The notes beneath the pieces were generated by a model. It did no database searches, was not told the DNA's origin, and saw nothing but the letters and a program-made list of their open reading frames with translations. A DNA stretch of 49,387 bases from Oscillatoriales cyanobacterium CG2_30_40_61 (lineage in GTDB: Bacteria; Cyanobacteriota; Cyanobacteriia; Cyanobacteriales; Microcoleaceae). A program made the translations under genes and the position numbers. The stretch spans positions 1 through 49,387 of the forward strand of contig MNYZ01000028.1 in assembly GCA_001873365.1 (NCBI GenBank), in the 5' to 3' direction. Shown here in pieces: positions 111-10,559 of the stretch. The first letter of the stretch is position 1. Each line of letters starts with the position of its first letter.

Positions 111-329
111 TCATAAATTTTCCCATTCATCTCTCTCAATCATTGCCTGTCGCAATATCTCAGCCAAAAGCCCTCTGCCGATATCGCAGCGATGCGGGTT
201 CGGCACTCGCACGGTAATATCGCCCTTCTGCATATACTGGTGTTTGCTGCCAGCATAAGGCCCATCAAAACCCAGTTGCTTTAAATACTTGATTAAATCT
301 CGACGACTAATTGGCCCAAAAGCAGGCAT
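111..329 (-). CDS. hicA: HicA-type mRNA interferase toxin
   Basis: This encodes a 72-residue protein of the HicA family, small double-stranded-RNA-binding-fold ribonucleases that cleave mRNA when freed from HicB. The family pattern is visible: ISRRDLIKYLKQLGF at the N-terminus, then GSKH with the likely catalytic His at residue 30, and a VRVPNPH strand. The ATG at 329 overlaps the hicB stop by one base (TAATG), so the pair is translationally coupled and this start is preferred over a longer in-frame extension to 443. The order is hicB then hicA, the less common one. The length is normal, so the toxin could be active. Confidence 0.85.
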   Translation of the reverse strand: MPAFGPISRRDLIKYLKQLGFDGPYAGSKHQYMQKGDITVRVPNPHRCDIGRGLLAEILRQAMIERDEWENL

Positions 330-571
330 TATGCAACTTCCTTGATCGATAATTCTATTCCATCGACAACAGGTAAAGGCAAATTCTGCGAAATCCGCAA
401 CAAAATCCAATCTTCCAAAACCTCTGCCAATTCTTCTCTGCAAGTTTCGAGTGCATCTGCATTAGCCCATAGACCCTGAAAGCCGGGAATTTCCCCGAAA
501 AAAGTACCATCATCTGTCAATATCTTGTACTTGGCTTTATGCAAAGCGGCTTGGAGGTATTTTGTCAACAT
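329..571 (-). CDS. hicB: HicB-type antitoxin
   Basis: This is an 80-residue partner of HicA. The sequence shows the partial RNase H-like HicB fold: a KYKILTDDGTFFGEIPGFQGLWA strand-loop segment followed by a helix rich in E and L (residues 40-58). There is no obvious C-terminal ribbon-helix-helix or HTH extension, so it belongs to the short HicB class, and autoregulation by DNA binding is uncertain. It is the first gene of the two-gene minus-strand operon. In the family it neutralises HicA by blocking its active site. Confidence 0.82.
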   Translation of the reverse strand: MLTKYLQAALHKAKYKILTDDGTFFGEIPGFQGLWANADALETCREELAEVLEDWILLRISQNLPLPVVDGIELSIKEVA

Positions 572-1833: not shown

Positions 1834-2949
1834 TCATAAGTTCAGTTGATTCCGAAGCTCAACATCGTATTCAGCTTTCTCCCAGTTTTTGGCAACATTT
1901 TTTACCTGTTCTGCCGTTAGATTTTTTGTATCTGTAAGTTTAGCCTGGAGTAAATCAGCATTAGCAAAAATAGCGCCATTGAGATCAGCACCACTAAAAT
2001 CTGTATCTTTAAGAATAGCACCACTGAGATTAGCTTTGAATAACTTAGCACCACTGAGATTAGCACCACTAAGATTAGCACGAATCAGTTTTACACCACT
2101 AAGATTAGCACAACTGAGATTTGCTTTATTAAGCTCTAGCCTACTAAGATTAACATCAGTAAGGTTAGCACAACTAAAATTAGAATCATTAAGTTTTGCC
2201 TCACTAAGATTGGCTTTTGAGAAATTAGCCCCACTAAAATTGCCAGCCCTAAGATCGGCAGCGAAAAATTTAACTTTAGAGAGATTAGCCCTAGAAAGAT
2301 TAGCTTTAAAAAGTTTAGCTTCAGTTAAATCAGCATTACTTAAGTCGGCATTGGCAAAGCAAATCTCATAAAAGTTATTTTTAGAAAGATTAGTGCCGCT
2401 AAGATTAGAGTGCTTCAATATAAAATTGGAAAGGTTCGCACTTCTCAAAAAATCTAAAACTTGATTCTTGCGCTCTGTATCGTTTCTCAGTCTCCGCAAT
2501 ACCATCACTGTATTTACACGCGCTACTTCCCTTATAGGATTATCATTTAACTCATTATTCAGCAAAAGTTCCGTTCGATACTTCTTGTCAACCAAAAGAT
2601 TGGTCATTCGGTCAAAGTAAGCTCTGACTGCCTCTTCTCGTAAGTTTTCTGATACTTCATTACTTTGATTGCTTTGAAATAAAAGGAGAGCTAATGGAAT
2701 TGCCAATGTACCAGCCAGCAATAGCCAATCCCAAATCTTCTTTTCTGATTGAAAATTATCAATTTCTTTTCTTATTTTTATAATTTTCCCATTTTGGGGA
2801 TTTATTGCTTCTTCTATAGAGACGGATTTGCCAGATGTTTTTCCAAAGCCACTCCATTCAAAACCATATAAAATTTGACCAAAAATAACCACTCCTAAAA
2901 ATATTAATATCCAGGAGGCAATTCGCCAATTTTTAATGATCTTTTTCAT
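1834..2949 (-). CDS. Membrane-anchored pentapeptide-repeat protein
   Basis: A 371-residue protein with two predicted membrane helices (about residues 11-29 and 74-92), a charged helical segment with EAVRAYFDRM and VARVNTVMVLRRL (about 105-165), then about 30 pentapeptides of the A(D/N)LS type from residue 170 to 345. Pentapeptide repeats fold into a right-handed quadrilateral beta-helix; the helical linker is common to cyanobacterial membrane members of unknown role. The start codon overlaps the stop of the 136-residue gene (ATGA), so it ends the peptide-maturation operon. Immunity, scaffolding or no link to the peptide are all possible. Confidence 0.85.
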   Translation of the reverse strand: MKKIIKNWRIASWILIFLGVVIFGQILYGFEWSGFGKTSGKSVSIEEAINPQNGKIIKIRKEIDNFQSEKKIWDWLLLAGTLAIPLALLLFQSNQSNEVSENLREEAVRAYFDRMTNLLVDKKYRTELLLNNELNDNPIREVARVNTVMVLRRLRNDTERKNQVLDFLRSANLSNFILKHSNLSGTNLSKNNFYEICFANADLSNADLTEAKLFKANLSRANLSKVKFFAADLRAGNFSGANFSKANLSEAKLNDSNFSCANLTDVNLSRLELNKANLSCANLSGVKLIRANLSGANLSGAKLFKANLSGAILKDTDFSGADLNGAIFANADLLQAKLTDTKNLTAEQVKNVAKNWEKAEYDVELRNQLNL

Positions 2950-3356
2950 CTATTCTCCTGCCCCATAAAGCTCTTTAAAGCACTAAGATACTTGCCATTA
3001 AGATTCATAAAATCTTCCCACTTAAAACCACCAAAATCATCTCCCCAACCATGAGCCAAGAATATTTGACGGTCATCAATTTTAAACCATTCTGCGGCTT
3101 CGTGCAGTTCCAAACTTGCCACTAGGTTCGTAAAAGCATATAGGGCATCTGAGGGTGTTAGGATTGCTGACAGCTTTACTGTGCTATTAATTGTTAATCC
3201 CACCTCCTCCCCTTGCTGTTGAGAATGAGGTAACGATGGACATCTGAGGGAAATTAAAGCTTTTTCATCATCTATTCGACGGATTGAAAAGGTGTACCCT
3301 GGCTTATATGATAGCCTTTTTGCTATCTCACCCAATAGTATAAAATTTTCTTCCAT
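2946..3356 (-). CDS. Unknown protein in the peptide-maturation operon
   Basis: A 136-residue soluble protein I do not recognise. It has no signal peptide or membrane helix. The N-terminus (about 1-35) looks like a small beta/helix unit, the middle holds LTINSTVKLSAILTPSDALYAF, and the C-terminal half is aromatic and acidic (HGWGDDFGGFKWEDFM). It lies 42 bp after the iron-site protein and overlaps the next gene by four bases, so it is very likely co-transcribed with the radical SAM gene. A leader-binding or carrier role is conceivable, but nothing in the sequence proves it. Confidence 0.6.
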   Translation of the reverse strand: MEENFILLGEIAKRLSYKPGYTFSIRRIDDEKALISLRCPSLPHSQQQGEEVGLTINSTVKLSAILTPSDALYAFTNLVASLELHEAAEWFKIDDRQIFLAHGWGDDFGGFKWEDFMNLNGKYLSALKSFMGQENR

Positions 3357-3398
3357 GTTTTTCTCTATGTTGTTTTATGAATAATTCTATGAACATTG

Positions 3399-4217
3399 CT
3401 ATATATGCGGACAATTAAAAAGACTTCGCATTGTGAAAAATACATCAATACTATTTGTTCCCTCAGTACACCCATCGTGAGTAATATGTTCTGTGGGAGC
3501 TATATAAGCTTCTCCTGGGTTAACTTTCAATTTAACAACAGGATAGTTCGGGAAAAGCTGCATAAATGCCCTGCCAATCCTTGAACTACCCCAAGTTTCA
3601 CTAACTAAATTACCATCTGTTTCAGACACCAATCTATAAAGCTGCTGAATTGATAGATTGATGAATAAAAAATAGCGTGGTTGAGAGCCAAGATTGATTA
3701 AGATACGATGGAGCGATGAACCATGCTGATTATCAATATGAAGACCAACTCTGCAATCTCTATTGCCAGCAGTTACAGTCATCTGGTTAGGGGCATTAAA
3801 CCCAATTCTATACTTACTTAGGTCTGCGTGTTGGAGACGGAAGGTTTCAATATACTCCTGAATTAAGCTAATACCTTTTCCTATGCTCTCTTTTTCTAAA
3901 AGATACTTCAACGCCGTATGGTGTTTTACATTACCTAGCTCGTTAAGGTGACATAAAATATTTTGAGGAATACTGAGAAGAGTTACATACAAATTTGAGT
4001 AATTATCAACTTTATTGCTGAAAAGGATTTTTTGTTCCATTGAAGTAAGCGATCGCCAAGGTAATCGAGGGACAATTGCATCATTACAGTAAGGAGTGGT
4101 AGCTTGATCTGTTGAAATACTAGCCGACTCGGTTCCCGAACTTAATAAAACTCGCTCTTCAAAACTTATCTCATTATAACCATCAACAATTGTTATTTCT
4201 TCCATCAGTTGATACAC
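3399..4217 (-). CDS. Putative Fe(II)/2-oxoglutarate-type oxygenase in the peptide cluster
   Basis: A 272-residue protein without signal peptide. The C-terminal half resembles a double-stranded beta-helix: G-L-H160-I-D162, then HRILINLGSQPRYFLFINL, and PGEAYIAPTEHITHDG with H244 or H247, followed by R264. An HxD...H triad plus a distal Arg is the pattern of Fe(II)/2-oxoglutarate dioxygenases; this assignment is inference from motif spacing. The GTG start at 4217 is preceded by GGGAG at a good distance, better than the internal ATG. It lies 39 bp after the HEXXH gene. It could hydroxylate the modified peptide or be a structural cupin. Confidence 0.55.
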   Translation of the reverse strand: MYQLMEEITIVDGYNEISFEERVLLSSGTESASISTDQATTPYCNDAIVPRLPWRSLTSMEQKILFSNKVDNYSNLYVTLLSIPQNILCHLNELGNVKHHTALKYLLEKESIGKGISLIQEYIETFRLQHADLSKYRIGFNAPNQMTVTAGNRDCRVGLHIDNQHGSSLHRILINLGSQPRYFLFINLSIQQLYRLVSETDGNLVSETWGSSRIGRAFMQLFPNYPVVKLKVNPGEAYIAPTEHITHDGCTEGTNSIDVFFTMRSLFNCPHI

Positions 4218-4256
4218 ACATTTATCTCCCTTTATTAATTTAAAGTTCCTAGAAAC

Positions 4257-5507
4257 TTAAGACAAATAACCCCGACCTGCCTTAACTACAGAATGTAAAT
4301 TATCAACACAAGCACTAACTAAAAGCTTACCTGCATCAGTTAACGTTTCAGACTTTATTAAACCTTGATAAGCTATATCGGCAAAACTAAGTGTTTCAAC
4401 CCAGTAACTCTCAGCTTCCGAGTACAAATTTTCAGATGAAAACCAAGGAGAAGATACAAGTTTAGCCCATACAGCCGCCCCAGCCGAAAAGGTCAGTAAA
4501 GCATGAATCACCTGTCTGAGAGGACGATCTCTGTTTTTCCAAGGAGAAAAAATCTGTGGTGAATTTCCGTCTGTTGTGTAAAGACGGACATTTTTTTCAA
4601 TCAGATTAACTTTGGTATGAAAAAACTCATGCACCATTTGTACGCACAAGTGGCATTTTTCTTCTATTCGATCAACTTCAGGATCGAAGTCTTGCCAAGC
4701 CCAACCAGGCAAGTGCGATACAGAACCAGCCTTCCGTGTAGTTGGAGAGTAAGGAGGCAAGACAGTGTAAACCTTCATCAAGCGACTCATGCTGACACCA
4801 AGTCCCATATCTAAGAATGAAAGCAGATCCAAGCAGAGGCGGATTTCATCATGCCTGGTGCTTACAGCCGAGACATCATACAGATAATCTTTTTCAATAA
4901 AATTAAACTCATTTCCCGCTGCTGCGGGTTGAGTTATTGCTGTGGAAATACGAATTCCTGACCGTGTAAAACTGTCTGGCAACCAAGTTATGCAATCCGA
5001 TTTATCATCAATTAGCATCTCAATTGCTTGTTTTGTAATTTCTCCAAGATCGCTATCTTGTGTAACAGCCCCCGCTCTAGCTAGTGTAGGAAAACAAAGA
5101 AGAGAGCCAGCAGTGACTTTCACGTTTTTGAGAGGATCTAAACCTAAAATCAAGCCCCCACTCAGCGGTGAAAACAGAGTATAAAAATTAATTAGGAAGT
5201 TCTTAATCCTACCAGTATCGTCGCTGACATAAGCTTGGAAAAGCGATCGAGATTTTGCTTCAAGTTCCCTATATTGCAAAAACAAACCGCTCAATATATC
5301 CACATCATCATTTTGCTTGAGAAGCGCTGAGGCTAACTCATAACCTTGATTGCTAAGAATATACAGCATGGCTATGTGTCGGGTAGCTGACTCCTCAACA
5401 TATTTAATTAACGCATTTTGGTAGAACAGTTGAGTGTCATCTAGCTTACAGGTCAACTCCAAGTCAATAGTTCCAATCTCAGTCTCTTGGTCTGCACACA
5501 CGATCAT
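4257..5507 (-). CDS. HEXXH motif protein, putative peptide-modification partner
   Basis: A 416-residue protein with a zinc-metallohydrolase signature H293-E-F-F-H297 in MVHEFFHTK. It resembles the family of HEXXH proteins found beside or fused to FxsB-type radical SAM/SPASM enzymes in RiPP clusters. Unlike FxsB fusions, which often carry a degenerate metallohydrolase extension, the HEXXH here is intact and on a separate chain. It starts 12 bp after the maturase stop with AAGGA upstream, so the two are tightly coupled. Known of the family: genomic association with peptide maturases. Inferred: cleavage of the leader or of the modified product. Confidence 0.75.
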   Translation of the reverse strand: MIVCADQETEIGTIDLELTCKLDDTQLFYQNALIKYVEESATRHIAMLYILSNQGYELASALLKQNDDVDILSGLFLQYRELEAKSRSLFQAYVSDDTGRIKNFLINFYTLFSPLSGGLILGLDPLKNVKVTAGSLLCFPTLARAGAVTQDSDLGEITKQAIEMLIDDKSDCITWLPDSFTRSGIRISTAITQPAAAGNEFNFIEKDYLYDVSAVSTRHDEIRLCLDLLSFLDMGLGVSMSRLMKVYTVLPPYSPTTRKAGSVSHLPGWAWQDFDPEVDRIEEKCHLCVQMVHEFFHTKVNLIEKNVRLYTTDGNSPQIFSPWKNRDRPLRQVIHALLTFSAGAAVWAKLVSSPWFSSENLYSEAESYWVETLSFADIAYQGLIKSETLTDAGKLLVSACVDNLHSVVKAGRGYLS

Positions 5508-5519
5508 AACGCAACGTCC

Positions 5520-6692
5520 TTATGAGATACCTGATAGTTCAGTGGATAAATAATCTCTAATGTGATCAATGATAATTATTAAGTCTTCACAATAAATTGA
5601 TTCCCTATTAAAGCCATGCTCTGAACTGTAACGATGAGGCAGATATCCACCACCACAGACATCAAATAACCGACAATTAAGACACTTTTGAGGTGCAGAA
5701 AATTGCTTGTTAGATAGTGCCGTGACTAAAGGCAAAGACTCTAAAGCTTCAATCGGATGAGAATCCAGCGACATACCTGTTTTGGTAGCACCATGATATG
5801 CAGTTTTCAGAACATCTAGTCCGTGATAAGTGCCATCAGTTTCAACTATGATGACTCCATCACTCAATGCACCAAAGGAGTCAAAGCCTTTGTTTCCACC
5901 CATTAAAAGCTTCATTAGAGTTCTGAATATACGAACTTCCATGCTGGTTTCTGAGGCTATCCAATAATCGAAAAGAGCAGATAACCATCGACCAAAAGTT
6001 CCTGGGGGATACTTATCGTATGGAAAAGTATCATAGTTGAAGTCTGGTAGAAGAAAATCTATAGCTGTCGTGTTTAGTTTCTCAAAGAATGTGAATAATT
6101 CATAAGGATCTATTTCTGGATTAGCAACGGTGAGAAAACCTCCAAATACAGATCCCCCAAACTTGGGATTACGCAGCTTTTCTACACCAGCTATAATCTG
6201 TGAAAAGCTTCCGCGCCCTTTTGCGTCAACACGCATAAGATCGTTCCATTCTTGCGGCCCATCAATACTAACACCCGCACGAACATTGAAGTCTTGAAGT
6301 ACCTGCACAATGTCATCGTCTACCAGCGTTGCATTCGTTTGAAGTCCGAACTTCACATCCGCTTCAATATCCTGAAAACTACTCGACAAAATAGTGAAGA
6401 ATTCTCTAAGTTTAGCTGCTCCGAGTAGAAGAGGCTCACCCCCATGAAAAACGACAATAATTTGTTTTAACTCACGAATACGAATATAGCTGCTAAGACG
6501 ATCTGCTAAAAGCTGGATCGTCTTAGGACTCATCACAACTGGCTGCTCTCTCCAAGTTTGATCTGGGTGTTCGTACATATAGCAATAGGAACACTTGAGA
6601 TTGCAACGACTTACTACTTTAACTACAAAAGTTGTTATGGGTCGTACTTCGTAGAAATCAGTTCTCTGGGGTAGAAGCAAATCAAGTGACAT
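5520..6692 (-). CDS. Radical SAM/SPASM peptide maturase, FxsB/GrrM type
   Basis: A 390-residue enzyme. C30-x3-C34-x2-C37 (CNLKCSYCYMYEH) binds the SAM [4Fe-4S] cluster, HGGEPLLLG is the glycine-rich SAM site near residue 80, and the C-terminal SPASM segment has CLNC, CGGGYLPHRYS and IYCEDL for auxiliary clusters. CxxxCxYCYxYEH and CGGGxxxHRYS are typical of three-residue cyclophane-forming enzymes (FxsB, GrrM). The ATG at 6692 has AAAGGAAGG just upstream; a longer frame to 6779 would run across the precursor stop and is rejected. The likely reaction is an aromatic side-chain to beta-carbon crosslink in the two precursors encoded just upstream. Confidence 0.85.
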   Translation of the reverse strand: MSLDLLLPQRTDFYEVRPITTFVVKVVSRCNLKCSYCYMYEHPDQTWREQPVVMSPKTIQLLADRLSSYIRIRELKQIIVVFHGGEPLLLGAAKLREFFTILSSSFQDIEADVKFGLQTNATLVDDDIVQVLQDFNVRAGVSIDGPQEWNDLMRVDAKGRGSFSQIIAGVEKLRNPKFGGSVFGGFLTVANPEIDPYELFTFFEKLNTTAIDFLLPDFNYDTFPYDKYPPGTFGRWLSALFDYWIASETSMEVRIFRTLMKLLMGGNKGFDSFGALSDGVIIVETDGTYHGLDVLKTAYHGATKTGMSLDSHPIEALESLPLVTALSNKQFSAPQKCLNCRLFDVCGGGYLPHRYSSEHGFNRESIYCEDLIIIIDHIRDYLSTELSGIS

Positions 6693-6775
6693 AAACCTTC
6701 CTTTAAAGCTACAGTGAAAACCCAAATTATCGTTGGCTAAAAGCAAGCCAAGAACCCTCTCAGTAAAAAGCTGAC

Positions 6776-6952
6776 TCAATTGGTAGTGTGACTACTGAAG
6801 TCAGACCAGGCAATTGGCTCCTTACCCATCCGTTCCGCTTGAATCGCTTGAATCGCAACTACAACTTTGGGGTTAATTTTTTGTAGCTGTTCCTCTTTCA
6901 AATCATTAACTGCAAGTTGAGTGATAGGTTTATAACTCTGATAAACGGTCAT
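6776..6952 (-). CDS. RiPP precursor peptide 1 (proximal)
   Basis: A 58-residue peptide starting MTVYQSYKPITQL, with a leader helix (NPKVVVAIQAIQAERMGK) and a short C-terminal core W49-S-D-F52-S-S-H55-T-T-N58. The aromatic residues fall exactly three apart, so the core reads as three Omega-x-x units, the substrate pattern of three-residue cyclophane enzymes; F-S-S also fits the Phe-x-Ser motif that names FxsA. The start ATG overlaps the TGA of the maturase-remnant ORF (ATGA) and has GGAG upstream. It lies 83 bp upstream of the maturase gene. It is 81% or so alike to precursor 2 by eye, with conserved leader and core. Confidence 0.82.
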   Translation of the reverse strand: MTVYQSYKPITQLAVNDLKEEQLQKINPKVVVAIQAIQAERMGKEPIAWSDFSSHTTN

Positions 6953-7020
6953 TTAGCTTCGTCACTCCTTAAATAGATGTAGAACTCAGATTTCTGGGGT
7001 GGGACCAAATCAAGTGACAT
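6949..7020 (-). pseudogene. Remnant of the radical SAM gene 5' end (23 codons)
   Basis: The frame begins MSLDL and matches the first 14 or so residues of the maturase (MSLDLLLPQRTDFYEV), including its ribosome site, then diverges and ends at a TGA that overlaps the start codon of precursor 1. It is a by-product of the tandem duplication. It may now serve as a short leader ORF that couples translation into precursor 1 (inference). Confidence 0.75.
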
Positions 7021-7108
7021 AAATTTTCCTTCAAAGCTACACTGAAAACCAAAATCATTGTTGTGGAAAAGCGTTTCGAGCCAAGCGCCCTATCAGTAGA
7101 AAGCTGAC

Positions 7109-7285
7109 TCAATTAGTCGTGTGACTACTGAAATCCAGCCATTCAATTGGCGCTTTACCCATCCGTTCCGCTTGAATCGCTTGAATCGCAGCTACAACTT
7201 TTGGATTGATTTTCTGTAGCTGTTCCCCTTTCAAATCATTAGCTGCAATTTCAGCCAGAGGTTTAGAACCAAGATAAACTGTCAT
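7109..7285 (-). CDS. RiPP precursor peptide 2 (distal)
   Basis: A 58-residue paralogue of precursor 1, starting MTVYLGSKPLAEIAAND and ending W49-L-D-F52-S-S-H55-T-T-N58. Differences from precursor 1 lie mostly in the N-terminal third; the segment from INPKVV to the core is nearly identical, apart from S50 to L50 and a few changes before W49. This is the first gene of the operon, with GAGG nine bases before the ATG. The two peptides would give products that differ in the ring residue after Trp. Confidence 0.82.
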   Translation of the reverse strand: MTVYLGSKPLAEIAANDLKGEQLQKINPKVVAAIQAIQAERMGKAPIEWLDFSSHTTN

Positions 7286-7497: not shown

Positions 7498-8883
7498 ATG
7501 AATCTTAAAGAAATGTTACATCTTGCTGATAAGATAGTCTTCGAGAAAACGGGTCAGCACCTTGACGATTTACAAGAAGCGGTACTAAAAGCAACTCTAC
7601 AACATGATACATACAAGCACGTAGCCAAAGACTTTGACTGTTCTGAAAGTCGTGTTAGGAATGCGGCTTCGCAATTATGGCAGATACTTTCAGAAGAGTT
7701 GGGAGAAGATGTCAATAAAAAGAATTTTCGCTCGGCGATGGAGAGGTTACAAATCTCCCTATTTTCAAATGTTATACAAGATAATGTTATACAAGATAAT
7801 GTAGGAGTTGGTAGTATTAATATCTGTGGAGAAGGAAGATACCCCCCAAATACACCAAACTCACCCCCACAAAATCAAGAAACACCTAACACAAAACAAC
7901 CTGAAACTCCATATCAAGATTTAAGCGAGATGCCAGAATTAGGCACATTCTACGATCGCACTCCCGAACTCCAAACCCTCACCAATTGGATTCTACAACA
8001 ACACAGCCACCTCATAGCCTTGACTGGTATTAGCGGTATCGGTAAAACGTCCCTAGCAGTACAACTCGTACAACAAATAAAAAATCAATTTGATTACATA
8101 ATTTGGCGCACAATAGATTCATCCCACACCCTCGACGAATTTCAACAGGAACTAATTCAGCTTTTCTCCCAGTCAGAAAAACTAGACTCCCCTACAACTA
8201 AACCGAAACCTTTATCCCTAATTAAGTATTTACAAAAGCATCGCTGTTTAATTATATTAGATGATGTTCACAATCTTTTCAGTAGCGGCGAATTGGCAGG
8301 AAAGTATAAACCAGAATACGAAGAATATCGCCATTTTTTTAAACAGATAGAAAAATTATCCCATCAAAGTTGCTTTCTTTTAATCGGTTGGGAACAACCC
8401 AGAGAAATCTCTCAAATCGAAAGCCAAAATAATCCTATTCGTACTTTACAAATTAGAGGTTTAGATATCGCAGCCGCAGGGGAAATACTCAGAGATTACG
8501 GGTTAGCAGAAATCGACTACTCAATACTCATTCACCGTTACCAAGGCAACCCTTTATGGTTAAAAAGTGTCGCAACTCTGATTCAAGAATTAGGATTCAA
8601 TGTTACTGATTTATTACAAAATGATATCATCTTATTACCCGAAGATGTTAAAGATATTTTACGGCAACAGTGCGATCGCCTGTCCGATACAGAAAAACAA
8701 ATATTGTCTATAATAGCTAGGGAAACTCAACCCCTAAAAATGGCAAAATTAATAGACAAACAACCCAATTTAAACTTAGAATTAGTTAATGTCTTACAAT
8801 CTTTACAACGGCGTTGTTTACTAGAAAAAATTGAGGATAGTTTCTGGTTATCACCTCTAATTAAGCAGTATTTGCTCATATAA
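7498..8883 (+). CDS. STAND NTPase with N-terminal winged-helix (vMAP-type) domain
   Basis: A 461-residue protein. Residues 1-85 resemble the winged-helix domain at the start of cyanobacterial vWA-MoxR-associated proteins. A linker holds a short direct repeat (NVIQD twice) and a Pro/Asn-rich stretch. The NB-ARC ATPase follows: Walker A GISGIGKTS at about residue 177, Walker B LIILDDVHN near 258, a GNPLWLK segment, and a C-terminal winged helix ending at the stop. The WD40 or TPR sensor that usually follows is absent, so this may be a minimal or truncated switch. It is divergent from the RiPP operon; regulation of it or a defence role are inferences. Confidence 0.78.
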   Translation: MNLKEMLHLADKIVFEKTGQHLDDLQEAVLKATLQHDTYKHVAKDFDCSESRVRNAASQLWQILSEELGEDVNKKNFRSAMERLQISLFSNVIQDNVIQDNVGVGSINICGEGRYPPNTPNSPPQNQETPNTKQPETPYQDLSEMPELGTFYDRTPELQTLTNWILQQHSHLIALTGISGIGKTSLAVQLVQQIKNQFDYIIWRTIDSSHTLDEFQQELIQLFSQSEKLDSPTTKPKPLSLIKYLQKHRCLIILDDVHNLFSSGELAGKYKPEYEEYRHFFKQIEKLSHQSCFLLIGWEQPREISQIESQNNPIRTLQIRGLDIAAAGEILRDYGLAEIDYSILIHRYQGNPLWLKSVATLIQELGFNVTDLLQNDIILLPEDVKDILRQQCDRLSDTEKQILSIIARETQPLKMAKLIDKQPNLNLELVNVLQSLQRRCLLEKIEDSFWLSPLIKQYLLI

Positions 8884-9238: not shown

Positions 9239-9895
9239 ATGAGCCAATCTATCCCCATCTCCTGGTCTAAGGCGGGCGTCTCTATCCCCCTAGAGCAACT
9301 TCCCCTTGAACAACTCCCCAATACCGATTTAGTCCTACGGTGTCAAGAGGGAGTCTGTCCAGATAAAGCAGCCTTTACAGAATTGCTTCGTCGGTATCAG
9401 TCCCATGTTGATAAGATTCTCTATCACCTCGCCCCGGACTGGCAAGATCGGGCCGACCTTGCCCAAGAAATCTGGATTCGAGTCTATCGCAATATTAAAC
9501 GTTTACAGGAACCTGTCAAATTTCGGGGCTGGTTAAGTCGAATTGCCACAAATTTATTTTATGATGAACTCCGCAAGCGCAAACGGGTAAAACCCCCCTT
9601 ATCTTTAGATGCGCCTCGCAATCTTGAAGATGGGGAAATGGATTGGGAAATCGCCGCCGATGGCCCTGGCCCCGATGAAGATATGGCAACCCGTGAATTT
9701 TATAGTCATCTTCATGAAGCGATCGCCGATTTACCCGAAGCCTTCCGCACCACAATTGTTTTGCGGGAAATTGAAGGATTAGCTTATGAGGAAATCGCTG
9801 AAATTACCGGGGTTTCCCTAGGAACAGTGAAATCGAGAATCGCCAGAGCGCGTCAACGCTTACAAACCGATCTGCAAGTGTATCTCAATCCCTAA
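9239..9895 (+). CDS. sigG: ECF RNA polymerase sigma factor, SigG type
   Basis: A 218-residue group 4 sigma factor. Region 2 spans about residues 40-105 (AFTELLRRYQSHVDKILYHL, DLAQEIWIRVYRNI, FRGWLSRIATNLFYDELRKRKR), and region 4 about 150-212 (LPEAFRTTIVLREIEGLAYEEIA, GVSLGTVKSRIARARQRL, the HTH). The length and the proline/glycine linker match cyanobacterial SigG. The next gene in the same direction encodes a membrane protein with an anti-sigma-like N-terminus, the usual partner, so activity is probably controlled by envelope or redox stress signals (inference). The ATG at 9239 lacks a strong Shine-Dalgarno, common in cyanobacteria. Confidence 0.85.
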   Translation: MSQSIPISWSKAGVSIPLEQLPLEQLPNTDLVLRCQEGVCPDKAAFTELLRRYQSHVDKILYHLAPDWQDRADLAQEIWIRVYRNIKRLQEPVKFRGWLSRIATNLFYDELRKRKRVKPPLSLDAPRNLEDGEMDWEIAADGPGPDEDMATREFYSHLHEAIADLPEAFRTTIVLREIEGLAYEEIAEITGVSLGTVKSRIARARQRLQTDLQVYLNP

Positions 9896-10007
9896 ATAAT
9901 GGGTAGGCGAGCGGGTGAAATTCCCGTTAATAGGGATATAATAGTTCTATAGGTTAAACCCCAATTTCTCATGTCTGATTTGATATTTGGTCAACGGGGG
10001 TGTTCCG

Positions 10008-10559
10008 ATGAAGCACAATTCTGATCCAGAACTACAAACTTACTCAACCATCGGGGGACATCTATCTGAGGAATACTCGGATCTTGACCCTAAAATCCAA
10101 TTGATTAGTGCTTACCTGGACGATGAAGCAACGGTGGAAGAACGCCGTCAAGTTCAGTTATGGCTGGATACCGATCCTAAGATTAAAGCAACTTATCTAC
10201 AACTGGTGCAACTGCGTTCGCGCCTACAAAACTCTCCTGTTCCTGCTTCTGGGACTTCAGTGCAACAACTGACCACCCGCGTTTTCCAAAGGTTAAATCA
10301 GAGAACCCGTAGAATGGCAACTTGGGGGGGAACAGCGATCGCGGCTTTATTAGTCATGACCTTTTCTAGTACAATTCCAGGCAATTCCGAGCGTTTTCCC
10401 ATCTTTGCCCAGTCTGAAACTCTGAACAATTCGGAACCTTTACAAATTGCCTTAAATGAGCCGCTGATCCCGATTATTACTCCGAATGCGGTTAGTATTA
10501 GCGTGGATCAACCAATTATTCCGATTCCGAAAGCTCCAGTTTCAAGATCAATAAATTAA
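10008..10559 (+). CDS. Membrane-anchored anti-sigma factor of SigG
   Basis: A 183-residue protein. Residues 30-75 (ISAYLDDEATVEERRQVQLWL) resemble the anti-sigma domain, one helix (about residues 102-120, ATWGGTAIAALLVMTF) spans the membrane, and the C-terminal 65 residues are proline- and isoleucine-rich and probably periplasmic. The HxxxCxxC zinc motif of ZAS proteins is absent, so it is a non-zinc member. The ATG at 10008 follows GGGGGTG, and is better than an in-frame TTG 21 bp upstream. It lies 112 bp after sigG in the same direction; co-transcription is likely, although a TATAAT at about 9939 may give a second promoter. Confidence 0.75.
   Translation: MKHNSDPELQTYSTIGGHLSEEYSDLDPKIQLISAYLDDEATVEERRQVQLWLDTDPKIKATYLQLVQLRSRLQNSPVPASGTSVQQLTTRVFQRLNQRTRRMATWGGTAIAALLVMTFSSTIPGNSERFPIFAQSETLNNSEPLQIALNEPLIPIITPNAVSISVDQPIIPIPKAPVSRSIN

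What the first reader, a model, noticed from the sequence alone, without database searches (positions are those of the whole stretch)
1834..7285. A RiPP cluster with two precursors whose cores have an aromatic residue every third position
The minus-strand operon holds two short peptides (58 residues each, 7109-7285 and 6776-6952) followed by a radical SAM/SPASM enzyme of the FxsB/GrrM kind, a HEXXH protein and further genes. The peptide ends read W-x-D, F-S-S, H-T-T, N, so three Omega-x-x triplets sit side by side. Enzymes of this family crosslink an aromatic ring to the beta-carbon two residues later. A core with Trp, Phe and His in successive triplets would give up to three small rings, a product I do not recognise. 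Seen: genes, motifs, spacing. Known: FxsB/GrrM chemistry. Inferred: number and place of the rings.
Basis: partly seen in the sequence, partly recalled or inferred. Interest (0 to 1): 0.88.

Follow-up and report, generated by a model that had tools for sequence, protein, structure and literature searches.

The report
Cyanobacterial triple-ring peptide gene cluster
This stretch of a cyanobacterial genome holds genes for two small peptides and an enzyme of a kind known to stitch aromatic side chains into tiny rings; the peptide ends are strictly conserved in related cyanobacteria, so it looks like a real member of the known triceptide type, with an unusual mix of ring-forming residues and two different oxygen-adding enzymes.

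Summary
Two 58-residue tandem-duplicate peptides precede a radical SAM gene and an HExxH gene, and both end in W-x-D F-S-S H-T-T-N. In homologous cyanobacterial clusters W49, D51, F52, S53, S54 and H55 are identical in 15 of 15 peptides (12 distinct), with silent codon changes at five of the six; positions 50 and 56-58 vary. The maturase lies nearest YhhB/FxsB/ChlB, not GrrM, and falls below every curated cut-off. The HExxH protein matches the aKG-HExxH peptide beta-hydroxylase domain and ChlH. Best reading: a triceptide pathway making Trp-Asp and Phe-Ser cyclophanes, probably also a His cyclophane, then hydroxylation. The third ring is least sure: the His partner varies (Thr/Lys/Gln) and is Thr here. 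New variant of a known kind; no mass data.

The parts
7109..7285 (-). precursor peptide 1, 58 aa, core W49-L-D-F-S-S-H-T-T-N58
6776..6952 (-). precursor peptide 2, 58 aa, core W49-S-D-F-S-S-H-T-T-N58
6979..7080 (-). decayed copy of the intergenic DNA and maturase 5' end between the two precursors, left by the tandem duplication
   Evidence: tblastn stub (55.9% over 34 aa); blastn of the two copies 83% over 308 columns
5520..6692 (-). radical SAM/SPASM-type peptide maturase, 390 aa from the likely ATG start (mechanical ORF 5520-6779 begins at TTG); CNLKCSYC motif and C-terminal cysteines C337, C340, C346, C368
   Evidence: NF041707 YhhB 385.4 bits (cut-off 445), TIGR04269 FxsB 363.8 bits (cut-off 370); Pfam Radical_SAM 5.6e-15, no separate SPASM match; ChlB 9gm3 E 1.3e-81; start and cysteines
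4257..5507 (-). HExxH protein (HEFFH), putative aKG-dependent peptide beta-hydroxylase, 416 aa
   Evidence: TIGR04267 46.2 bits, cut-off 40; ChlH 8s5f E 1.6e-4; HExxH invariant in 9 of 9 aligned rows; SPW and RP residues shared with the fused L027 enzyme
3399..4217 (-). MicC-like aKG/Fe(II) oxygenase, 272 aa, H160-x-D162...H247
   Evidence: 9vkm E 6.9e-29; triad invariant in 14 of 14 aligned homologues; homologues beside or fused to radical SAM genes or remnants in 5 of 7 fetched regions
2946..3356 (-). 136-aa protein of unknown fold, so far seen only with this cluster
   Evidence: no family; present in 9 of 9 loci with coverage; no match in the other 387 of 388 genomes sampled from the class
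1834..2949 (-). pentapeptide-repeat protein, accessory; near full-length relative only in L002, a 51-aa match in L004, L006, L042
7498..8883 (+). divergent STAND/NB-ARC ATPase with N-terminal sigma70-region-4-like HTH (weak match), putative regulator or partner
   Evidence: Pfam NB-ARC 5.6e-15; Sigma70_r4 E 0.0063, under its cut-off; divergent neighbour in 8 of 8 loci with upstream DNA; tree

Best explanation
It is a triceptide-type RiPP pathway. Step 1 (inferred from family): the radical SAM enzyme binds the conserved leader and joins the aromatic ring of the first residue of each triplet to the beta-carbon two residues on: Trp49 to Asp51, Phe52 to Ser54 and, less surely, His55 to residue 57, giving two or three adjacent small rings. 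Step 2 (inferred): the ChlH-like HExxH enzyme and the separate MicC-like enzyme, both aKG/iron oxygenases by homology, hydroxylate beta-carbons in or beside the rings, most plausibly the middle residues (Ser53, or residue 56, which is Thr, Asn or Asp in all 15 peptides). Step 3 (relatives only): a GT9-type glycosyltransferase, missing here, adds a sugar. Leader removal and export are unexplained: none of the nine ORFs scanned matched a protease or exporter family, unless the HExxH protein cleaves. My odds: at least the Trp-Asp and Phe-Ser rings about 0.75; all three rings about 0.5; at least one hydroxylation about 0.65.
For: Maturase closest to the cyclophane-forming YhhB and FxsB families and to ChlB; its ten members form their own clade (100/99) inside a larger supported group of 19 with the YhhB-like fused enzymes, a His-repeat clade and L009, apart from GrrM. 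Core invariant in 15 of 15 peptides with silent changes. Each triplet resembles a published substrate: Trp to Asp (OscB), Phe to Ser (MscB), His to Ala or Arg (HaaB, YhhB) (PMC11002830 section 16). Sister clusters L019 and L020 have cores HPKHSSYSSYTKHSK and HTKHTSHSSHSKYSS, so step-3 aromatics and H-x-K triplets recur beside this enzyme type. ChlB/ChlH precedent: cyclophane first, then beta-hydroxylation of Asp and His (PMC12636437 introduction). MicC-like gene: homology to a solved aKG oxygenase, triad invariant 14 of 14, next to or fused with radical SAM genes or remnants in L045-L049. GT9, whole or broken, is found in 6 of 9 loci, all of which have the MicC-like gene.
Against: No mass or expression data. 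The maturase misses every curated cut-off. The His partner varies T/K/Q and is Thr in the window, where bonding at the beta-carbon would make a fully substituted carbon, for which I know no example. The whole F-S-S block is conserved, not only the aromatics. The MicC-like gene is absent from the clusters of L001 and L007. In L007 (a MAG) the maturase lacks its last 44 or so residues, with one of the four C-terminal cysteines, and runs in frame into the HExxH gene as one 756-codon frame. The Prochloron HExxH gene lacks about 147 N-terminal residues. So the pathway is not uniform. The HExxH model was too poor to use (pLDDT 38.7). The YhhA-type core of L027 shows no significant step-3 run (shuffle 0.39).
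Confidence: 0.68

Rival explanations
1. Only two rings form (Trp49-Asp51 and Phe52-Ser54). His55 is kept for another reason: a recognition or metal-binding residue, a site of beta-hydroxylation by the HExxH enzyme, or the mark for C-terminal trimming.
For: Residues 56-58 vary while W-x-D-F-S-S-H is fixed; residue 57 is Thr here. [quoted passage not shown]
Against: Sister clusters carry H-x-x runs, in L019 and L020 including H-x-K, the form seen in 7 of 15 peptides here; YhhB and HaaB link His C2 to a beta-carbon.
Confidence: 0.4
2. The HExxH protein is a leader peptidase (zincin-like), as proposed for FxSxx systems, and not a hydroxylase.
For: HExxH is a metallopeptidase motif; Kaur et al. 2020 describe the FxSxx-system enzyme as a zincin-like peptidase (PMC7159879 section 24); none of the nine ORFs scanned matched another protease family. 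A related HExxH enzyme, PflC, shows oxidative cleavage and proteolytic activity (PMC12636437 abstract).
Against: Match to the aKG-HExxH beta-hydroxylase domain above its cut-off and to ChlH, with SPW and RP residues shared with the fused relative L027.
Confidence: 0.2
3. Peptide plus STAND/NB-ARC gene is a cyanobacterial counterpart of the actinobacterial FxSxx peptide modules coupled to AP-ATPases: the ringed peptide is a signal or effector sensed by, or acting with, the STAND protein.
For: Divergent STAND gene in 8 of 8 loci with upstream DNA; on the tree the Prochloron copy is a different paralogue from the other seven (2 changes), so the neighbour was recruited twice or replaced; AP-ATPase coupling is described for FxSxx systems.
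Against: The STAND family has 32 matches in the own genome (E <= 1e-5), and 43 in G117 and 17 in G082 (E <= 1e-30), so proximity is partly expected; it may be only a local transcription regulator. No vWA/MoxR partners were looked for.
Confidence: 0.25
4. The step-3 aromatics are incidental, and the peptides are not modified at the core.
For: Within the two peptides alone the spacing has a shuffle frequency of about 0.017-0.018.
Against: Invariance across loci, silent codon changes, co-occurrence with the maturase, and step-3 runs in sister clusters.
Confidence: 0.05

Closest known systems
ChlB/ChlH, fused radical SAM and aKG-HExxH (Chlorogloeopsis), and YhhA/YhhB
   Same: Maturase E 1.3e-81 to ChlB; HExxH partner related to ChlH; aromatic-x-x triplets (relatives L027 and L029 match YhhA, core YDR-M-HHR-HNR); in L007 the two genes even run into one frame
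   Different: Separate genes in the window and in the other relatives with both genes covered; core uses Trp, Phe and His instead of Tyr and His; extra MicC-like oxygenase; below the YhhB cut-off (385.4 against 445); no YhhA match of the precursors
FxsA/FxsB (FxSxx-COOH) systems of actinobacteria
   Same: Maturase score 363.8 against cut-off 370; F-x-S motif; HExxH/zincin-like partner and NB-ARC/AP-ATPase neighbour
   Different: Core does not end F-x-S-x-x: F52 is followed by six residues; Trp and His added; host and neighbour architecture differ
GrrM/OscB triceptide clusters of cyanobacteria
   Same: Trp-x-Asp cyclophane motif; MicC-like oxygenases sit next to GrrM genes (L046, L047, L049)
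   Different: Maturase scores only 95.3 against 310; the precursor has no glycine-rich repeat
MicC (PDB 9vkm), aKG-dependent non-heme iron oxygenase
   Same: 3399-4217 product aligns over 251 residues, E 6.9e-29, with H-x-D...H
   Different: I found no paper on MicC's substrate in the held library (one search), so its reaction is unknown to me

Membership tests
Triceptides (three-residue cyclophane RiPPs) | radical SAM maturase whose closest families are three-residue cyclophane-forming enzymes | tested here: met
   Best three NCBIfam matches are cyclophane-forming families (YhhB, FxsB, XyeB), each under its curated cut-off; ChlB best in PDB
Triceptides (three-residue cyclophane RiPPs) | small precursor next to the maturase with aromatic-x-x motif(s) in the core, conserved | tested here: met
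Triceptides (three-residue cyclophane RiPPs) | C-C bond from aromatic ring to beta-carbon of residue i+2 | not testable with these tools
   needs mass spectrometry and NMR
YhhA/YhhB | maturase above NF041707 cut-off | tested here: not met
   385.4 bits, cut-off 445
YhhA/YhhB | precursor matches NF041705 YhhA | tested here: not met
   no family at E 10 for the window peptides nor for the L001 and L026 peptides; L027 and L029 peptides do match
FxsA/FxsB | maturase above TIGR04269 cut-off | tested here: not met
   363.8 bits, cut-off 370
FxsA/FxsB | precursor ends F-x-S-x-x-COOH | tested here: not met
   ends F-S-S-H-T-T-N
GrrM/OscB | maturase above TIGR04261 cut-off | tested here: not met
   95.3 bits, cut-off 310
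aKG-HExxH peptide beta-hydroxylase | domain match above TIGR04267 cut-off and HExxH | tested here: met
   46.2 bits, cut-off 40, residues 283-398
aKG-HExxH peptide beta-hydroxylase | ChlH-like fold over the whole protein | tested here: inconclusive
   model mean pLDDT 38.7, unusable; sequence match to ChlH covers residues 279-397 only
MicC-like aKG/Fe(II) oxygenase | homology to MicC and 2-His-1-carboxylate triad | tested here: met
   E 6.9e-29; H160, D162, H247 in 14 of 14
MicC-like aKG/Fe(II) oxygenase | hydroxylation of a peptide | not testable with these tools
   needs enzyme assay

The most novel reading that the evidence does not exclude
One maturase makes three different adjacent cyclophanes (Trp, Phe and His) on a ten-residue core, which two unrelated aKG oxygenase families then hydroxylate (and, in relatives, a GT9 enzyme glycosylates at a hydroxyl made by the MicC-like enzyme), to give a tricyclic oxidised peptide that works with the divergent STAND/NB-ARC protein as a signalling or conflict module.
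Probability: 0.18. Interest if true: 0.78.

Novelty: new variant of a known kind. Interest (0 to 1): 0.5.

Why it matters
Triceptide enzymes named in the review section I read link Trp and Phe, or Tyr and His; a natural core with Trp, Phe and His in consecutive triplets would test how one active site handles three ring types and in which order. The cluster pairs two unrelated oxygenase families with one maturase, and related genomes offer a natural series (with or without the MicC-like gene, with or without GT9) for dissecting who does what. The recurrent STAND/NB-ARC neighbour links cyanobacterial cyclophane peptides to the AP-ATPase-coupled peptide modules proposed for actinobacteria, where the peptide's role is open.

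Tried and rejected
GrrM membership: rejected on score. TTG start of the maturase at 6779: rejected in favour of ATG 6692 (in-frame stop 11-22 codons before LLPQRT in 8 of 9 relatives; the exception is L005). Shared leader motif with YhhA-type (A6) and His-repeat (A7) precursors, which I thought I saw by eye: hhalign gave no match (probability 0.4% in both), so not claimed. Fold of the 136-aa protein: model half confident (pLDDT 63.5), Foldseek best E 0.021, weak type III chaperone-like hits (TM 0.38-0.40): not claimed. HExxH model unusable, no fold search made. NF040586 FxSxx_TPR match of the STAND protein (29.8 bits, cut-off 300) covers only the P-loop part: not taken as membership. The shuffle statistic for L027 (0.39) does not support step-3 runs in the YhhA-type core, although Tyr-Arg and His-Arg links are published for YhhB. 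In the maturase tree the L007 row includes part of its fused HExxH frame, so its branch length is not meaningful; in the STAND tree I used 24 of the 89 non-cluster matches, mostly better-scoring ones, and left out fragments such as G000:C73:19746 and G117:C1:1438517. Papers: the JACS 2022 triceptide landscape and the Nat Chem 2024 ChlB paper are not held, and one search for MicC gave nothing relevant, so I cannot say that this precursor family is unreported; from recall, the 2022 landscape listed several thousand precursors, and this family may be among them.
Full report
What is there. On the minus strand, two 58-codon ORFs at 7109-7285 and 6776-6952 are followed by a radical SAM ORF, an HExxH ORF (4257-5507), a 272-codon ORF (3399-4217), a 136-codon ORF (2946-3356) and a pentapeptide-repeat ORF (1834-2949). 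A STAND-type ORF (7498-8883) starts divergently, about 210 bases upstream of precursor 1. The peptides end in EWLDFSSHTTN and AWSDFSSHTTN. The two precursor copies and the DNA behind them, up to the first codons of the maturase, are one tandem duplication (83% over 308 columns; stub seen by tblastn). The maturase very probably starts at ATG 6692: in 8 of 9 relatives an in-frame stop lies 11-22 codons before the conserved LLPQRT.

More than chance. Shuffling the last 16 residues gives three step-3 aromatics in 1.7-1.8% of cases, which alone is weak. Homologues carry the weight. One scan of genome contigs gave 9 relatives of the maturase, 8 of them close (L001-L008, cyanobacteria, 68-88% identity) and one distant (L009, Micromonospora, 34%); a complete genome, G117, added L042. 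Fifteen precursors from ten loci, window included (12 distinct sequences), were aligned: W49, D51, F52, S53, S54, H55 are identical in all 15; position 50 is L, S, A, Q, R or K; positions 56-58 read TTN, TTD, NKN, NQS, NKD or DKN. The Prochloron peptides were taken from L026, the same region as L008. Silent changes occur in the codons of D51, F52, S53, S54 and H55, so the residues are under selection. Caveat: L004 and L042 have identical precursors, as have L001 and L007; nine of the ten maturases are about 82% or more identical to the window's (the window's own counted), and Prochloron (68%) is the only deep comparison.

Co-occurrence. In 388 genomes of the order the maturase (E <= 1e-60) was found in 17; 9 of these, the own included, are 68% or more identical and belong to this family, and 8 are 35-38% identical. 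The precursor profile found 10 of 388: the same 9 plus G011, where the peptide lies at a contig end, with the maturase's first codons following.

The maturase. NCBIfam: YhhB 385.4 bits (cut-off 445), FxsB 363.8 (370), XyeB 167.8 (450), GrrM 95.3 (310). Pfam finds the radical SAM domain but no SPASM match; the C-terminal cysteines C337, C340, C346 and C368 are present. PDB: ChlB radical SAM domain 9gm3, E 1.3e-81. A tree of 24 enzymes puts the ten of this family in one clade (100/99), inside a group of 19 (100/99) with the YhhB-like fused enzymes L027-L029, the His-repeat group L016-L020 and L009; the order inside that group is open; GrrM types fall outside; the program warns of long branches. 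So it is a relative of the cyclophane-forming enzymes outside every curated family.

What the neighbours' cores say. L027-L029 encode 721-723-aa proteins; the one scanned, L027, contains both a YhhB and an aKG-HExxH domain; two of their three precursors were scanned, L027 and L029, and both match NF041705 YhhA; all three end YDRMHHRHNRS. The L016, L019 and L020 precursors carry cores HESHSSHAEF, HPKHSSYSSYTKHSK and HTKHTSHSSHSKYSS; shuffle frequencies for their step-3 runs are 0.018, 0.0046 and 0.0049, and 0.39 for the L027 core (four relatives tested). Step-3 aromatic runs are therefore at home beside this enzyme type, and H-x-K triplets occur in two of the five L016-L020 peptides (L019, L020).

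Known chemistry. A review section that I read in full (PMC11002830 section 16) lists Trp to Asp/Asn (OscB), Phe to Ser (MscB), Tyr to Asp (YxdB), His to Ala (HaaB), and Tyr and His to Arg (YhhB), besides XncB's Trp and Phe links. The window's triplets W-x-D and F-S-S fit listed pairs. His is a known ring donor, but Thr, Lys and Gln are not among the listed partners of His. The primary papers are not held.

The oxygenases. The HExxH protein passes TIGR04267 (46.2 against 40) and aligns with ChlH 8s5f over residues 279-397, E 1.6e-4. [quoted passage not shown] The 272-aa protein has no Pfam or NCBIfam match but matches the aKG oxygenase MicC, 9vkm, E 6.9e-29; H160, D162 and H247 are invariant in 14 of 14 aligned homologues. 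In 388 genomes of the class 9 have a match, the own included. Of the other eight I fetched seven regions (G006, G017, G535, G689, G084, G463, G532; G604 not fetched). Three have a GrrM gene directly upstream, confirmed by family score (L046, L047, L049; 539-549 bits against 310). One has a SPASM-like remnant upstream and a short radical SAM piece further off, with transposase-like ORFs by eye between them (L045). One has two tandem fusions of radical SAM to this domain (L048). Two gave no blast match to the maturase in the 14-kb stretch (L043, L044). The domain is thus often, not always, linked to radical SAM maturases.

Gene content of the ten loci. Precursor 10 of 10: two copies in 5, one copy in 3, and in 2 (L001, L003) the contig starts too close to tell. 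Maturase 10 of 10, but in L007 (a MAG) it lacks its last 44 or so residues and runs in frame into the HExxH gene as one 756-codon frame: a recent fusion by deletion, or an assembly fault. HExxH gene 10 of 10, cut by the contig end in L005 and lacking about 147 N-terminal residues in Prochloron. MicC-like gene in 7 of 9 clusters with coverage (absent in L001, L007; the rest of those genomes not searched). GT9 (products of L002 and L008 match Pfam PF01075) intact in 4 of 9 (L002, L003, L006, L008), broken in 2 (L004, L042), absent in 3 (window, L001, L007). The 136-aa protein 9 of 9, on the opposite strand in Prochloron. All six clusters with GT9, whole or broken, have the MicC-like gene, which suggests, on few cases, that the sugar goes on a hydroxyl that this enzyme makes.

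The STAND gene. It is the divergent neighbour in 8 of 8 loci with upstream DNA. The family is large: 32 matches in the own genome at E <= 1e-5, 43 in G117 and 17 in G082 at E <= 1e-30. In G117 the cluster's copy is the best of 43 matches to the window's copy; in Prochloron it is the second of 17. A tree of 32 (8 cluster copies and 24 of the 89 other matches) needs 2 changes for the cluster label: the Prochloron copy is a different paralogue. Either a STAND gene was paired with the cluster twice, or one copy replaced another. Kaur et al. 2020 (PMC7159879, section 24 read in full) describe AP-ATPases coupled to FxSxx peptide-processing systems in actinobacteria and suggest that the peptide is a toxin or signal.

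Mechanism and odds. See best explanation. Shown: genes, homology, conservation, synteny. Inferred: rings, hydroxylation, order, role. The third ring is the least certain step.

Novelty. The enzyme kind, the ring types singly and the HExxH hydroxylase are known. None of the nine paper searches, of which I saw listings, turned up the Trp/Phe/His core or this pair of oxygenase families with one maturase. That is weak evidence of novelty: no search was made for the core letters, and the main subscription papers are not held.

Noticed in passing
L048:5175-9544 (-): Two tandem genes (738 and 719 aa) fuse a radical SAM domain to the MicC-like oxygenase domain, close to an ORF that by eye looks like a peptidase-type ABC exporter (585-2837): an apparent single-chain maturase plus oxygenase RiPP system.
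   Followed up: partly
L007:8064-10331 (+), approximate: The maturase, shortened by about 44 residues at its C-terminus, and the HExxH enzyme run as one 756-codon frame in this MAG: possibly a recent ChlB-like fusion, possibly an assembly fault.
   Followed up: partly
L016-L020 precursors: FxsB/YhhB-type clusters whose cores are runs of His/Tyr-x-x triplets (up to five in a row in L019 and L020), possible multi-ring His triceptides.
   Followed up: partly
window 7498-8883 and G000, G082, G117: STAND/NB-ARC proteins with an N-terminal HTH-like region are a large family in these cyanobacteria (32, 17 and 43 matches); a different paralogue sits beside the cluster in Prochloron.
   Followed up: partly
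L008:9176-9976: The Prochloron HExxH gene lacks about 147 N-terminal residues; either the C-terminal domain suffices or the gene is decaying.
   Followed up: no
window 111-571 (-): A HicA/HicB-like toxin-antitoxin pair by eye (110-aa and 80-aa ORFs), downstream of the cluster; no family search made.
   Followed up: no
window 9239-10559 (+): An ECF-type sigma factor ORF followed by an anti-sigma-like ORF, by eye; no family search made.
   Followed up: no
G000:C42:6066-7226 (L012): A second, GrrM-like radical SAM gene in the same genome (24% identity to the maturase; groups with GrrM in the tree).
   Followed up: no
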